Shown: positions 56,994 to 61,383 of the stretch, in pieces
How positions within the stretch are numbered: the stretch's first letter is position 1
How the letters are laid out: each line of letters starts with the position of its first letter
Source of the DNA: Massilia rubra
Lineage (GTDB): Bacteria; Pseudomonadota; Gammaproteobacteria; Burkholderiales; Burkholderiaceae_D
DNA length: 64,000 bases
Reading direction: 5' to 3'
Assembly (NCBI RefSeq): GCF_011682065.1
Contig: NZ_VUYU01000008.1
Span: 248,001 to 312,000 of the forward strand
The notes under the pieces: generated by a model
Databases searched by the model: none
What the model saw: only the letters and a program-made list of their open reading frames with translations
What the model was told of the DNA's origin: nothing
Translations under genes and position numbers: made by a program

Positions 56994-57021
56994 TAGCGGT
57001 TTAGGCAATATTGACTTGAGC

Positions 57022-58305
57022 ATGAAAACATACATCGTTGGCGGCGCGGTGCGCGACGGCCTGCTGGGCCTGCCGGTGCAGGACCGCGACTGGATCGTGG
57101 TCGGCGCCACACCCGAAGACATGCTGGCCGCCGGCTTTCGCCCGGTCGGCAAGGACTTCCCGGTCTTCCTGCATCCCGCCACGCAGGAAGAATACGCGCT
57201 CGCCCGCACCGAGCGCAAGACCGCGCCCGGCTACCGCGGCTTCGTGTTCCACACCTCGCCCGACGTCACGCTCGAAGAAGACCTGGTGCGGCGCGACCTG
57301 ACCATCAATGCGATCGCGCGCGCCGACGACGGCAGCGTCACCGACCCGTTCGGCGGCCGGCGCGACCTGGAAGCGAAAATTTTCCGTCATGTGTCCGACG
57401 CCTTTGCCGAAGACCCGGTGCGCATCCTGCGCCTGGCGCGCTTCGCGGCGCGGTTTCCCGACTTTACGGTGGCGCCCGAGACCATGGCGCTGATGCGCAG
57501 CATGGTGGCGGCCGGCGAAGTCGACGCCCTGGTGGCCGAGCGGGTGTGGCAGGAAGTGGCGCGCGCCCTGATGGAGCAAACCCCGTCGCGCATGCTCGCC
57601 GTGCTGCGCGAGTGCGGCGCCCTGGCGCGCATCATGCCGGAACTGGACGCCCTGTGGGGCGTGCCGCAACCGCCGCTGCACCACCCCGAAATCGACACCG
57701 GCGCGCACATGATGCTGGTGATCGATTACGCGGCCGAACGCGGTTTCGACTTGCCGGTGCGCTTCGCAGCCCTGATGCACGACCTGGGCAAGGGCGCCAC
57801 GCCCTGCGAGCACTGGCCGCGCCACCACGGCCACGAGCAGCTCGGCCTGGCGCTGATCGACGCCGTCTGCGCGCGCCTGAAGGTGCCGGGCGAGTGCCGC
57901 GACCTGGCCGTGATGACCGCGCGCGAGCACGGCAACGTCAGCCGCGCGCAAGAGCTGCGCGCCAACACCCTGGTCACCCTGTTCGAGCGCTGCGACGCGT
58001 TCCGCAAACCGGCCCGCTTCGGGCAGATGCTGCTGGCCGCCGAGAGCGACTCGCGCGGGCGCGGCGGCGCGGGTGACGATTTCCGCACCCGGCCCTATCC
58101 GCAAGGGCCGTACCTGCTGCGCGCCCTGGACGCGGCGCGTGGCGTCAACGCCGGCGAAGTGGCGCTGCGCTGCGGCGAGAACAAGCAGCAAATCGCCCAC
58201 GCCGTGCACAGCGCGCGCGTTTCGGCCGTCAAGGCGGCGCTGCGCCTGGGCGACGACCCTGCTCAGGCGGACGACAGGGAAGAGCCGAATCCTGCTATTC
58301 TTTGA
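57022..58305 (+). CDS. cca: Multifunctional CCA-adding enzyme with HD domain
   Basis: Adds and repairs the 3' CCA end of tRNAs. The 427 residues include the nucleotidyltransferase start YIVGGAVRDGLLGLPVQDRDWIVVG with the paired aspartates, ERRDLTINAIA-like RRDLTINAIARADDG, DPVRILRLARFAARF, and an HD phosphohydrolase domain (LHHPEIDTGAHMMLVIDYA and ALMHDLGKGATP). This is the long gamma/beta-proteobacterial type with 2',3'-phosphodiesterase and phosphatase activities. The start at 57022 is chosen over a TTG two codons earlier. Confidence 0.96.
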   Translation: MKTYIVGGAVRDGLLGLPVQDRDWIVVGATPEDMLAAGFRPVGKDFPVFLHPATQEEYALARTERKTAPGYRGFVFHTSPDVTLEEDLVRRDLTINAIARADDGSVTDPFGGRRDLEAKIFRHVSDAFAEDPVRILRLARFAARFPDFTVAPETMALMRSMVAAGEVDALVAERVWQEVARALMEQTPSRMLAVLRECGALARIMPELDALWGVPQPPLHHPEIDTGAHMMLVIDYAAERGFDLPVRFAALMHDLGKGATPCEHWPRHHGHEQLGLALIDAVCARLKVPGECRDLAVMTAREHGNVSRAQELRANTLVTLFERCDAFRKPARFGQMLLAAESDSRGRGGAGDDFRTRPYPQGPYLLRALDAARGVNAGEVALRCGENKQQIAHAVHSARVSAVKAALRLGDDPAQADDREEPNPAIL

Positions 58306-58336: not shown

Positions 58337-59320
58337 ATGCTGTCCACCTTGCGCCGGGCCCTGCGTCGGACTCTTGGCGCGCTCGCCTGCTGCGTTGCAG
58401 GCGTCGCCGCGGCCCAGGCGCTTGTCAATGAGCCAATCCGGCCGCTGCCCGTGAAGGCGGTGGGCGACCCTGCGCGCATCGCCCTGGGCGAGCGCTTGTT
58501 CCAGGACCCGCGTTTTTCGCGCGAGAGCACCTACAGCTGCGCCAGCTGCCACCAGTTGCGGCGCGGCGGCGCCGACGGCAAGGCCATTTCCCCTGGCGCG
58601 AACGGCAAACCGGCGCGCTTTAACACGCCCACCGTCTATAACAGCAGTTTCAACTTCCGCCAGACCTGGACCGGGCGCTACAGCGGCGTCGAGCAGTTGC
58701 TCGACCACGTCATCGGCAAGCCGGCGGTATTTGCCGACAACTGGGACGTGGTGGCCGCGCGCCTGACCCGCGACGAGGCGCTGGCGGCCCAGTTCAAGGA
58801 TGTCTACGGCGACGCCCTGCGCCCGGCCTACGTGCGCGATGCGCTCGACCAGTATCTGCGCTCGCTGGTGACGCCCTCGCGCTTCGACCGCTACCTGCGC
58901 GGCGAGGCCGGCGCCATCACGGCCGAGGAAGAACGCGGCTACCTGCGCTTCAAGAGCTTCGGTTGCGCGGCCTGCCACCAGGGCATCAACCTGGGCGGCA
59001 ACCTGTTCCAGAAACTGGGCGCCATGCGCGAGATGCCGGGACAGGAAACGAGCGGCGCGGACCTGGGCCGCTACCACGAGACCGGCCGCAATATCGACCG
59101 CCACGTGTTCCGCGTGCCGGGCCTGCGCAATGTGGCGCTGACGGCGCCGTACTTCCATGACGGCTCGGTCGCTACCCTCGACCAGGCGGTGGAACTGATG
59201 TTCAAATACCAGCTCGGGCGCACCGCCTCGCAGCAGGACAAGGAATTGATCGTGCGCTTTTTGCACACCCTGAGCGGCGAGAAGCTGGTGCCGGCCGCGT
59301 CGCCGGGAGCGTCGCCGTGA
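58337..59320 (+). CDS. Dihaem cytochrome c peroxidase (MauG/CcpA-like)
   Basis: A 327-residue periplasmic protein with a signal peptide (about 1-27, ending VAAAQA) and two c-type haem motifs, CASCH (68-72) and CAACH (210-214). Sequence between and after them (VYNSSFNFRQTWTGRYSGVEQLLDH; RVPGLRNVALTAPYFHDGSVATLDQAVELM) matches bacterial dihaem peroxidases, which reduce hydrogen peroxide with electrons from cytochrome c. The ATG follows CGGAGAAACGGG. Its stop overlaps the start of the diguanylate cyclase gene by four bases. Confidence 0.9.
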   Translation: MLSTLRRALRRTLGALACCVAGVAAAQALVNEPIRPLPVKAVGDPARIALGERLFQDPRFSRESTYSCASCHQLRRGGADGKAISPGANGKPARFNTPTVYNSSFNFRQTWTGRYSGVEQLLDHVIGKPAVFADNWDVVAARLTRDEALAAQFKDVYGDALRPAYVRDALDQYLRSLVTPSRFDRYLRGEAGAITAEEERGYLRFKSFGCAACHQGINLGGNLFQKLGAMREMPGQETSGADLGRYHETGRNIDRHVFRVPGLRNVALTAPYFHDGSVATLDQAVELMFKYQLGRTASQQDKELIVRFLHTLSGEKLVPAASPGASP

Positions 59321-60855
59321 GAGGGGTGCTCAGTTCCTGGCGCCGCGTCGCCTCGCTGCTGCTGCTGATCGCGCTGATGGTGGTGCTGGGCGTGCTGTTC
59401 AACCGCACCCAGGCCGTCGACCTCGAAGCGCAGAACCGGGTCATGCTCAACCTGCGCGAGCTGGAAAAGCTCGACTCGGAGTGGAACGTCAACATCCTGC
59501 GCTCGCACATTGGCTTGAACAGCAACTACGATCCGCTCTCGACTCCGCTGCCGCGCATGCGTGAACTGCAGCTGCGCCTGGCCGCCGCCTTGCCGATGAC
59601 CGGCAACCCGAGGGCCGGCGACGCGCTCGAAGAAGTCAAGCGCGCGCTGGTGAAGAAGGAAGAACTGGTCGAGCAGTTCAAGACCCAGAACGCGATCCTG
59701 CGCAATTCGCTGATCTTTTTCCCGCCCGCGATCACCGACCTGAAGACCGAATTGAATGGCATCGAAGGGGCGATCGTGCCCGGCCGCGTGGTGCTGGCGC
59801 TCGATACCGCCTTGAACAGCCTGCTGAGCGACATCCTGCGCTACAACCTGGCGCCGTCGCCGGCGCTGGCGGCGCAGATCGAACGCACGATCGCCTCGAT
59901 GCAGCCCTTGCGCGGCGACTTTTCGGACAGCGTGAGCGACACCATCGACGAACTGGGACGCCACGCGCACGCCATCCTGCGTTACCGCCAGCTGGAAAAC
60001 GAACTCGAAATGCATATCGCGAACAGCCGCACGGCCGAGGCGATGGAAAAGCTGGGCGGCCTGTTCGACACCTCGTTCGACCAAGTGCTGATCGAAAAAC
60101 AGCGCTACCGGACCTATTTGTTCGCCTATTCCGGCTTGCTGTTGCTGCTGCTGATGTACGTGGCGCGGCGCCTGCTGCGCAGCTACAGCATCATCGGCGA
60201 GGTCAATCGCAGTTTGCAGGCGGCCAACGAGACGCTCGAACATCGCGTGGCCGAGCGCACCGCCGAGCTGGAAGCGCAGTCGGAGCGCTTGAAGCAACTG
60301 GCGCAGCACGACAGCCTGACCGGCTTGATCAACTACGGCGAGCTGACCCGCCTGCTGGCGCACGCGCTGGTGCGGGCCGGGCGACGCGGCGACGTGGTAG
60401 TGGCCATGTTCATCGACCTCGATGGCTTCAAGGCGGTCAACGACACCTACGGGCACGCCACCGGCGACCTGGTGCTGTGCGAAGTGGCCAAGCGGGTGCA
60501 GGACAAGCTGCGCAAGGAAGACGCGCTGGCGCGCCTGGGCGGGGACGAATTCGTGATCTTGCTGGAAGAGGTCAGCGGGCGCGATGGCGCGCTGCGGGTG
60601 GCCCAGCAGACGCTCGACGCGATCCGCTCGATCACCGAGGCGGGCGGCTTCCCGGTGCGTATTTCGGCCAGTATCGGCGTGGCCAGCGCCAAGGGCAAGG
60701 AAGGCTTCATGCGCGGCGCGCCGGCGCTGCTGGCCGACGCCGACCAGGCCATGTACCTGGCGAAGCAAGGCGGCAAGAATGGCATTTCGTTCAGCCCGCA
60801 GGCGCAGTGGAGCGAGGCGCCGCTGGCGCCGGTCGACTTCACCAGCGCGGTGTGA
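59317..60855 (+). CDS. Membrane-bound diguanylate cyclase with helical periplasmic sensor (DAHL-type)
   Basis: A 512-residue protein starting at GTG 59317. A membrane helix (about 10-28) is followed by an all-helical periplasmic domain (about 30-260) of the DAHL kind (NRVMLNLRELEKLDSEWNVNILRSHIGLNSNYDPL). A second helix (about 268-288) leads to a coiled coil and GGDEF domain. The active site is GGDEF (408-412), and an inhibitory-site RKED (399-402) lies five residues before it, so an active, product-inhibited c-di-GMP synthase is predicted. No EAL domain. Translationally coupled to the peroxidase gene. Confidence 0.9.
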   Translation: MRGVLSSWRRVASLLLLIALMVVLGVLFNRTQAVDLEAQNRVMLNLRELEKLDSEWNVNILRSHIGLNSNYDPLSTPLPRMRELQLRLAAALPMTGNPRAGDALEEVKRALVKKEELVEQFKTQNAILRNSLIFFPPAITDLKTELNGIEGAIVPGRVVLALDTALNSLLSDILRYNLAPSPALAAQIERTIASMQPLRGDFSDSVSDTIDELGRHAHAILRYRQLENELEMHIANSRTAEAMEKLGGLFDTSFDQVLIEKQRYRTYLFAYSGLLLLLLMYVARRLLRSYSIIGEVNRSLQAANETLEHRVAERTAELEAQSERLKQLAQHDSLTGLINYGELTRLLAHALVRAGRRGDVVVAMFIDLDGFKAVNDTYGHATGDLVLCEVAKRVQDKLRKEDALARLGGDEFVILLEEVSGRDGALRVAQQTLDAIRSITEAGGFPVRISASIGVASAKGKEGFMRGAPALLADADQAMYLAKQGGKNGISFSPQAQWSEAPLAPVDFTSAV

Positions 60856-60882: not shown

Positions 60883-61383
60883 TCAGGAAATGCCCAGCTG
60901 CTCCAGGCGATAGCGCATTTCGGCGGCGATGCCTTCATTGGGCGACGAGGCAAATTCGCGGATCAGGGCGATCGATGCGGGCGTGCCAATGTCGGCCAGC
61001 GCGTGGCTGAACCATTTGGCGATGACTTCATCCTCCGAACACGTATATTGGAGTGTGTCGAAGCCATTTTCAAGCATGGTTCGTATGCAAGGAATGCTTG
61101 ATGGATGGCCGAGATGCTGGATCTTCCTGGTGATCTCCTGATGATGATAGTGCCCCGGCATTATCAGCAAATTGTTCAGAATATACGCTTTGACATGCTC
61201 ATCCTTAATGCAGCCAATCATGCCGTCCAGTGACATCCAGTTGTCTTCATCGCTCGCGATGTCGGTCTGCATTTCGCCGAGAATGTAGTTTTTCAGGCTA
61301 TCGGCGTCGATGCCCGCCAGTTGATGTCGCTCAGAAAGGTTGGCGCGGATAGTATCGAGCAGCGTGCGTTGCGATTTGTCCAT
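60883..61383 (-). CDS. HEAT-repeat-like hypothetical protein
   Basis: A 166-residue protein made of short helices, with HEAT-like segments (VKAYILNNLLIMPGHYHHQEITRKIQHLGHPSSIPCIRTMLE and HALADIGTPASIALIREFASSPNEGIAAEMRYRLEQLG). No signal peptide or membrane segment. Codon use is less GC-rich than its neighbours, which hints at acquisition. I do not know its function. Proteins of this look occur as immunity-like partners of secreted effectors, but no effector gene is adjacent. Converges on the diguanylate cyclase gene, 27 bases apart. Confidence 0.62.
   Translation of the reverse strand: MDKSQRTLLDTIRANLSERHQLAGIDADSLKNYILGEMQTDIASDEDNWMSLDGMIGCIKDEHVKAYILNNLLIMPGHYHHQEITRKIQHLGHPSSIPCIRTMLENGFDTLQYTCSEDEVIAKWFSHALADIGTPASIALIREFASSPNEGIAAEMRYRLEQLGIS

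What the first reader, a model, noticed from the sequence alone, without database searches (positions are those of the whole stretch)
58337..60855. Peroxidase and diguanylate cyclase encoded as a coupled pair
The stop of a dihaem cytochrome c peroxidase overlaps the GTG start of a diguanylate cyclase by four bases, so the two are made in linked amounts. The cyclase has a large helical periplasmic sensor domain, an intact GGDEF and an intact inhibitory RxxD site. The peroxidase acts in the same compartment as that sensor. One hypothesis is that periplasmic peroxide or haem redox state feeds c-di-GMP signalling. The overlap and motifs are seen directly; the functional link is inference.
Basis: partly seen in the sequence, partly recalled or inferred. 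Interest (0 to 1): 0.55.

Follow-up and report, generated by a model that had tools for sequence, protein, structure and literature searches.

The report
Haem peroxidase paired with membrane sensor
A two-haem "peroxidase" of the cell envelope and a membrane sensor that makes the messenger c-di-GMP are encoded as an overlapping gene pair; the same pairing recurs in distant bacteria with matching conserved residues, which suggests that the peroxidase-like protein is the sensor's partner rather than just an enzyme.

Summary
A dihaem cytochrome c peroxidase homologue (CCP, 58337-59320) overlaps by GTGA a DAHL-GGDEF cyclase (59317-60855). The pairing is not local: 59 of 68 DAHL sensors in a Pseudomonadota sample have a CCP directly upstream, and 78 of 80 in a named-genome scan. 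126 of 155 pairs share the 4-base overlap; outputs vary (GGDEF, GGDEF-EAL, histidine kinase). In Burkholderiales only 18 of 57 are paired, the rest mostly one kinase clade. The 52 CCPs scoring >=400 bits all precede a DAHL gene (profile built from such CCPs).

DAHL residues D72, N130 and H216 are nearly invariant with a CCP and mostly absent without one, also in two orthologous loci where the gene order is cca-DAHL-GGDEF without CCP. In the window's lineage the CCP keeps both haems but lacks the canonical distal Gln/Glu, so efficient peroxidase activity is doubtful. The DAHL model is closest to TorS, whose sensor domain binds the periplasmic protein TorT.

Best reading: the CCP is a haem-bearing periplasmic co-receptor. 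Binding is inferred; a co-fold was inconclusive. New variant of a known kind.

The parts
57016..58305 (+). cca-type tRNA nucleotidyltransferase (PolyA_pol, PolyA_pol_RNAbd, HD), gene upstream, 31 bases before the CCP; marks the syntenic locus
   Evidence: Pfam; homologues (76% and 60% identity over about 390 aa) lie just before the DAHL-GGDEF genes of the CCP-less loci L248 and L249
58337..59320 (+). dihaem cytochrome c peroxidase homologue (CCP); predicted periplasmic partner of the sensor
   Evidence: PF03150; best solved chains 9qdt and 1iqc; signal-peptide-like N-terminus by inspection only
58538..58552 (+). haem 1 site CASCH (C68-H72)
   Evidence: sequence; first Cys and His kept in 155 of 155 linked CCPs
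58697..58699 (+). L121, aligned with the canonical distal Gln (chain Q92 of 1iqc)
58727..58729 (+). V131, aligned with the canonical distal Glu (chain E102 of 1iqc)
58742..58744 (+). W136, in 153 of 155 linked CCPs but also in 11 of 18 unlinked ones, so not specific
58964..58978 (+). haem 2 site CAACH (C210-H214)
   Evidence: sequence; first Cys and His kept in 155 of 155 linked CCPs
58979..58981 (+). Q215 (CxxCHQG), in 155 of 155 linked CCPs; marker of sensor-linked CCPs
   Evidence: exception L245 (N)
59198..59200 (+). M288, Met ligand position of the low-spin haem (M in 154 of 155 linked)
59317..59320 (+). GTGA overlap: start codon of the cyclase and stop of the CCP
   Evidence: same kind of overlap in 126 of 155 pairs
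59317..60855 (+). DAHL-GGDEF diguanylate cyclase, membrane sensor
59416..60111 (+). DAHL periplasmic sensor domain (residues 34-265), TorS-like helical fold
   Evidence: Pfam; AlphaFold2 of residues 29-270, pLDDT 93.9; TorS Z 15.8 over 219 residues
59527..59532 (+). Y71-D72, pair-associated residues
   Evidence: Y 143 and D 161 of 161 linked against 6 and 5 of 44 unlinked
59704..59709 (+). N130-S131 in motif FKTQNAILRNSLIFFPP
   Evidence: N 160 and S 154 of 161 linked against 2 and 10 of 44 unlinked
59722..59724 (+). P136 of the same motif
   Evidence: 147 of 161 linked against 6 of 44 unlinked
59962..59964 (+). H216, pair-associated histidine
   Evidence: 154 of 161 linked against 3 of 44 unlinked
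60511..60522 (+). RKED, inhibitory-site RxxD motif
   Evidence: sequence
60538..60552 (+). GGDEF active-site motif
   Evidence: sequence, PF00990

Best explanation
The CCP homologue is a haem-bearing periplasmic co-receptor of the DAHL sensor. It is made in step with the sensor by translational coupling. A change in its haem redox or ligand state is passed by protein contact to the TorS-like helical domain and through the membrane to the GGDEF domain, setting c-di-GMP. Shown here: the pair, the overlap, the wide conservation seen from both genes, residue signatures on both proteins, an altered sensor signature at loci without the CCP gene, and loss of the canonical distal pocket residues in this lineage. 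Inferred: that the CCP-less loci lost the gene, physical binding, direction of signalling, and the stimulus.
For: (1) Linkage seen from the sensor: 59 of 68 Pseudomonadota DAHLs; 78 of 80 loci in the genome-contig scan (query motif-biased). (2) Seen from the CCP: 52 of 52 places at >=400 bits and 57 of 60 at >=390 bits are followed by a DAHL gene (the profile was built from linked CCPs, partly from the same genomes). (3) 4-base overlap in 126 of 155. (4) Six DAHL residues: 161 of 161 linked score >=3 of 6, 42 of 44 unlinked score <=2. (5) CCP-less orthologous loci: in G330 and G301 the order is cca then DAHL-GGDEF with no CCP, and neither genome has a match to the window CCP at E<=0.001. The G330 cyclase is 59% identical over 499 aa with GGDEF and RxxD intact, yet each has 5 of 6 signature residues changed; CCP-bearing relatives keep all six at 59-63% DAHL identity (L016-L018) and even at 26% (L019), against 47-48% for G330/G301. 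An unlinked Pseudomonas DAHL (L217) also scores only 2 of 6. (6) Among 75 linked CCP rows on a tree, the distal Gln/Glu state changed at least 9 times, the W136+Q215 state 3 times; haem sites kept in 155 of 155. (7) Among 18 CCPs without a Pfam DAHL beside them, the 4 with Q215 all lie directly before a histidine kinase; 0 of the 13 others that could be judged do, by a kinase motif test. (8) Closest folds are TorS, including TorS-TorT complexes; XylFII-LytS is also listed.
Against: No contact was shown: a single-chain AlphaFold2 model of an in-frame CCP-DAHL read-through (L102) gave pTM 0.54, with 4 paired rows only. The test on independent pairs is too small (4 agree, 0 oppose, 1 no difference; p 0.125). 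L142 (P. fluorescens PS862) keeps the sensor motif, yet its genome has no CCP at E<=1e-10; two MAG loci of one genus (L235, L244) also keep most of the signature without a CCP. 39 of 57 Burkholderiales DAHLs have no CCP. Signature residues might bind a small ligand rather than the CCP. L245 is linked but lacks W136 and Q215. Loss of distal Gln/Glu is not confined to linked CCPs: of 14 more distant unlinked CCPs only 8 keep both, though 18 of 18 nearer ones do.
Confidence: 0.6

Rival explanations
1. Enzyme-to-ligand pairing: the CCP consumes or makes a small oxidant or oxidised molecule and the DAHL domain binds that molecule directly; the genes are paired because the sensor reports on the enzyme's substrate or product.
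For: 132 of 160 linked CCPs keep the distal Gln and Glu; related helical sensors such as McpS bind small ligands (entry titles); conserved polar residues D72, N130 and H216 could form a ligand site.
Against: In the window clade the catalytic pair is missing while the pairing and the sensor signature are kept; the pocket state changed at least 9 times among linked CCPs without loss of pairing.
Confidence: 0.2
2. MauG-like modification: the CCP oxidises a residue of the DAHL domain and thereby sets the sensor.
For: The CCP matches the MauG and MbnH-type NCBIfam models, far below their cut-offs; members of that superfamily modify partner proteins (recalled).
Against: The low-spin haem ligand position is Met in 154 of 155 linked CCPs, whereas MauG uses Tyr (recalled). 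The most conserved pair residues of the sensor are D, N, S and H; the Trp at sensor position 56 is commoner in unlinked (0.82) than in linked (0.35) sensors, weighted. The best-scoring solved chains are classical CCPs; MauG scores lower.
Confidence: 0.08
3. Maturation or feedback watch: the sensor reports on apo- versus holo-CCP, that is on cytochrome c assembly or haem supply, as recalled for apo-TorC acting on TorS.
For: TorS-like fold; haem-attachment sites stay conserved where the pocket residues are lost.
Against: Nothing tested here distinguishes apo from holo signalling.
Confidence: 0.07
4. Plain operon: a detoxifying peroxidase and a regulator are co-transcribed with no functional contact.
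For: Neighbouring bacterial genes often share transcripts; cca lies only 31 bases before the pair.
Against: Near-exclusive pairing seen from both genes, with varied outputs; conserved 4-base overlap; altered sensor residues at CCP-less loci.
Confidence: 0.05

Closest known systems
TorT-TorS (periplasmic protein plus helical sensor domain of a histidine kinase)
   Same: Predicted fold of the DAHL domain (TorS sensor Z 15.8, 219 aligned, rmsd 2.8; TorS-TorT entries Z 15.4); proposed working principle, a periplasmic protein read by a helical membrane sensor (passages of PMC6321045).
   Different: The partner here is a c-type dihaem CCP homologue, not a periplasmic binding protein; the output in the window is GGDEF; 12% sequence identity; binding not shown.
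XylFII-LytS, LuxP-LuxQ and QseG-QseE accessory protein and sensor pairs
   Same: An accessory protein outside the inner membrane stimulates a membrane sensor (passages of PMC6321045; abstract of PMC12691602).
   Different: In what I read, none of these accessory proteins is a haem peroxidase homologue.
Bacterial dihaem cytochrome c peroxidase (1iqc, 9qdt)
   Same: Two CxxCH sites, Met ligand position, conserved Trp, similarity over residues 31-316 (E 2e-58 to 1iqc).
   Different: Distal Gln and Glu replaced by L121 and V131, distal His position is not His; gene coupled to a sensor.
DAHL domain proteins (PF19443)
   Same: Domain match E 4.9e-53.
   Different: CCP-linked DAHLs carry a residue signature that the CCP-less Burkholderiales kinases lack.
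McpS (HBM-type, name recalled) and PilJ sensor domains
   Same: All-helical periplasmic fold (Z about 15).
   Different: McpS entries show small ligands bound (titles); sequence identity 8-11%.

Membership tests
DAHL domain (PF19443) | Score above Pfam gathering cut-off | tested here: met
   180.5 bits against cut-off 38
Diguanylate cyclase (GGDEF, PF00990) | GGDEF motif and domain over cut-off | tested here: met
   GGDEF at 60538-60552; 136.3 bits against 23.8
Diguanylate cyclase (GGDEF, PF00990) | c-di-GMP synthesis | not testable with these tools
   no assay
Dihaem cytochrome c peroxidase | Two c-type haem sites and Met ligand of the low-spin haem | tested here: met
   CASCH, CAACH, M288
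Dihaem cytochrome c peroxidase | Distal Gln and Glu of the peroxidatic haem (1iqc chain Q92, E102; their catalytic role is recalled) | tested here: not met
   L121 and V131 in the window protein
Dihaem cytochrome c peroxidase | Peroxidase activity | not testable with these tools
   no assay; made doubtful by the missing pocket residues
MauG / MbnH-type dihaem enzymes | NCBIfam cut-off | tested here: not met
   TIGR04039 134.7 of 362.85 bits and TIGR03791 118.3 of 443.85 bits
TorT-TorS-like accessory and sensor pair (works like) | TorS-like fold of the sensor domain | tested here: met
   Z 15.8 over 219 residues on a model of pLDDT 93.9; helical bundles may reach about Z 13 by arrangement alone
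TorT-TorS-like accessory and sensor pair (works like) | Physical complex of accessory protein and sensor domain | tested here: inconclusive
   single-chain co-fold of L102 pTM 0.54
CCP-linked DAHL subfamily (defined here) | CCP directly upstream, DAHL D72/N130/H216, CCP Q215 | tested here: met

The most novel reading that the evidence does not exclude
A widespread receptor class in which a dihaem cytochrome c peroxidase homologue is a dedicated haem-based periplasmic sensing subunit, pairing with TorS-like (DAHL and still unnamed) domains that drive kinases, diguanylate cyclases or GGDEF-EAL outputs. In lineages such as the window's the peroxidase pocket has been given up and only the sensing role is left.
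Probability: 0.45. Interest if true: 0.8.

Novelty: new variant of a known kind. Interest (0 to 1): 0.66.

Why it matters
If true, a large group of genes annotated as peroxidases are signalling subunits. Two open questions become testable together: what DAHL sensors sense, and why some dihaem peroxidase homologues lack the canonical pocket. It would give bacteria a haem-based periplasmic redox or gas input to c-di-GMP and two-component signalling, with a simple genetic test (delete the upstream gene, keep the sensor) and a natural comparison (lineages whose locus lacks the upstream gene).

Tried and rejected
First HMM profiles were built partly from the wrong strand and discarded; onwards uses corrected ones. 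A broad DAHL alignment gave no searchable stretch. A mixed alignment of read-through chains with separate CCPs and DAHLs put the DAHLs on the CCP part and was not folded. The read-through co-fold was not confident and is not used as support. The thought that W136 is pair-specific was rejected: 11 of 18 unlinked CCPs have it; Q215 is the better marker. Covalent modification of a sensor Trp was set low because that Trp is less conserved in linked sensors. My own DAHL profile missed five divergent linked DAHLs (L097, L233, L239, L241, L245), first labelled unlinked and corrected.

Rows dropped or chosen before counts. One search tested 57 over-cut-off DAHLs (one partial, G202, left out) and 68 (its G000 and G058 rows are counted in the first list). 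L237, L240 and L246 were left out of the signature comparison as near contig ends. L240 (15 bases upstream) and L246 (165) truly cannot be judged; L237 has 946 bases upstream without a CCP, so it is a real miss (signature 0 of 6), and L240 would score 3. One of two unlinked DAHLs of L199 was lost through a shared name, leaving 44. The 18 CCPs are 12 of the 13 unlinked places plus 6 lower ones that I picked.

dN/dS in the window clade (CCP 0.29, DAHL 0.135; seven sequences) shows purifying selection only. Literature: ten searches. 'DAHL domain' and 'PF19443' each gave the same one paper, on alignment methods by title and abstract start. No title or abstract start listed there described a CCP-sensor pair; some answers were capped (15 of 16, 20 of 22, 15 of 370 and 12 of 26 listed), and most subscription journals are not held. 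PMC4855414 was checked in passages: it lists a CCP gene in an expression table only.
Full report
What is there. The window carries a CCP homologue (58337-59320) whose TGA stop lies inside the GTGA start of a DAHL-GGDEF protein (59317-60855). Pfam finds CCP_MauG in the first, and DAHL (residues 34-265) plus GGDEF (329-488) in the second. GGDEF and the RxxD inhibitory site are intact by sequence. The gene before the pair is a cca-type nucleotidyltransferase, 31 bases away; the ORF after it (60883-61383) is on the other strand and has no Pfam match at E<=0.001.

Conservation near and far. Nine of 16 same-genus genomes have the close CCP (59-93% identity), each with the DAHL gene directly downstream. 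The window's own genome has a second pair, CCP plus DAHL-histidine kinase, on contig C96. Surveying by the sensor (Pfam DAHL), 59 of 68 Pseudomonadota DAHLs tested have a CCP directly upstream; two of the nine misses (L240, L246) lie too near a contig end to judge. In Burkholderiales the figure is 18 of 57. Most of the unpaired ones form one kinase clade (34 of 42 unlinked rows on the tree); in the three loci looked at (L181, L195, L204) the next gene is a protein kinase-receiver protein. A scan of named genomes kept the best 80 of 190 confirmed places: 78 have a CCP upstream, one (L103) ends at the contig edge and one (L142) has none. They include many Pseudomonas, Burkholderiales, and single MAGs labelled Leptolyngbyaceae cyanobacterium, Poribacteria, Bryobacterales and Hyphomonadaceae; binning was not checked. 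That scan searched for a piece of the sensor motif, so it favours sensors that carry it. Surveying by the CCP (profile A6, 398 genomes), 52 of 52 places at >=400 bits and 57 of 60 at >=390 bits are followed by a DAHL; the three others are 478-487-aa open frames of one genus. The profile was built from linked CCPs, some from these same genomes, so its ranking favours them.

Coupling and outputs. 126 of 155 pairs overlap by [A/G/T]TGA. The part after DAHL varies: GGDEF, GGDEF-EAL, histidine kinase, kinase-receiver (sequence motifs; Pfam checks of examples). So what is shared is the CCP plus the periplasmic domain, not a particular output.

Residues that go with the partner. Comparing 161 linked with 44 unlinked DAHLs: D72 161 against 5, N130 160 against 2, S131 154 against 10, H216 154 against 3, Y71 143 against 6, P136 147 against 6. 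All 161 linked score >=3 of 6; 42 of 44 unlinked score <=2. The two exceptions, L235 and L244, are in MAGs of one genus (88 and 87% complete) where no CCP was found at E<=1e-10. Most unlinked rows are one clade, so kinship matters. On a tree built without the signature columns, 5 independent pairs stand on supported branches: 4 agree, 0 oppose, 1 shows no difference (p 0.125; fewer than 6 informative pairs cannot reach 0.05).

CCP-less orthologous loci. In genomes G330 and G301 a cca homologue (76% and 60% identical to the window's) is followed directly by the DAHL-GGDEF gene; no CCP lies within 4 kb, and neither genome has a match to the window CCP at E<=0.001. The G330 cyclase is 59% identical to the window's over 499 aa, with GGDEF and RxxD intact. 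In both, five of the six signature residues are changed. Their DAHL domains are 47-48% identical to the window's. CCP-bearing relatives keep all six at 59-63% (L016-L018) and at 26% (L019). On the tree, G330/G301 group with the window clade (SH-aLRT 100). That they lost the CCP is inferred from the wide pairing. An unlinked Pseudomonas DAHL, L217, scores 2 of 6. Against this, L142 (P. fluorescens PS862) keeps the motif although its genome has no CCP at E<=1e-10.

The CCP is probably not an efficient peroxidase here. Aligned to Nitrosomonas CCP (1iqc; organism recalled), the window protein keeps both CxxCH sites, the W of QxWxG and the Met ligand position, but has L121 and V131 where the distal Gln and Glu should be. 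In the ten window-clade sequences the Gln is replaced in 10 and the Glu in 9 (L016 has a Glu aligned there). Over 160 linked CCPs, 132 keep both; among 75 linked rows on the tree the pocket state changed at least 9 times, the W136+Q215 state 3 times. The distal His position is His in 1 of 160. Among CCPs not next to a Pfam DAHL, 18 of 18 high-scoring ones keep Gln and Glu, but only 8 of 14 more distant ones do, so pocket loss is not unique to linked CCPs. The CCP is under purifying selection in seven sequences (dN/dS 0.29), looser than DAHL (0.135).

A marker on the CCP side. Q215, the residue after the second CxxCH, is Gln in 155 of 155 linked CCPs (L245, linked, has Asn). Of the 18 high-scoring CCPs without a Pfam DAHL, 4 have it, and these 4 lie directly before a histidine kinase whose periplasmic part Pfam does not recognise (no DAHL at E<=1). 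By a kinase motif test, none of the 13 others that could be judged does; one had no clear ORF. So the marker seems to foretell a sensor partner beyond DAHL; the numbers are small.

Fold. The DAHL model (residues 29-270, pLDDT 93.9, pTM 0.85) is closest to TorS sensor domains, alone and in entries with TorT, then PilJ and McpS; the XylFII-LytS complex is also listed. Helical bundles may score about Z 13 by arrangement alone, so Z 15-16 over 219 residues is good but no proof of kinship. TorT-TorS, XylFII-LytS and LuxP-LuxQ are described as binding protein-sensor pairs (passages of PMC6321045), and QseG-QseE is a recent accessory-protein case (abstract of PMC12691602). A single-chain co-fold of a CCP-DAHL read-through gave pTM 0.54 and settles nothing.

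Reading. The simplest account of pairing seen from both genes, translational coupling, residue signatures on both proteins, an altered sensor at CCP-less loci, and repeated change of the catalytic pocket with haems kept, is that the CCP homologue acts on the sensor as a haem-bearing co-receptor. Whether it reports redox state, a haem ligand (peroxide, NO, other) or its own assembly is not decided. Binding, stimulus and sign of the effect are inferences. From recall only: apo-cytochrome TorC acting on TorS, and indirect regulatory effects of the Geobacter CCP-like protein MacA, make a cytochrome-to-sensor route plausible. I saw no description of such a pair in the ten searches listed under Tried and rejected; the library lacks most subscription journals.

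Noticed in passing
L204:3863-7558, L181:3743-7645, L195:3608-7766: CCP-less Burkholderiales DAHL histidine kinases in these three loci are followed directly by a protein kinase (Pkinase) fused to response-regulator receiver domains: possibly a conserved kinase plus Ser/Thr-kinase-receiver system.
   Followed up: partly
L301:1-2993, L303:1-2930, L307:1803-4864, L309:1896-4831: CCPs with the CHQG marker lie directly before or overlap histidine kinases whose N-terminal region has no DAHL match at E<=1: candidate unnamed sensor domain family.
   Followed up: partly
L137:2333-8101: In a Pseudomonas syringae record the CCP-DAHL kinase pair continues by another 4-base overlap into a receiver-kinase gene, beside a divergent receiver-HD gene; the flanking genes look like gyrB and an acyltransferase by my reading only.
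   Followed up: no
L142:2976-6731: P. fluorescens PS862 has the DAHL kinase with intact motif but a receiver-GGDEF-EAL gene directly upstream instead of the CCP, and no CCP in the genome at E<=1e-10.
   Followed up: partly
window 60883-61383 (-): 166-aa ORF converging on the cyclase gene with no Pfam match at E<=0.001.
   Followed up: no
G000 whole genome: 66 places match the cyclase query, nearly all through the GGDEF part: a genome rich in GGDEF proteins.
   Followed up: no
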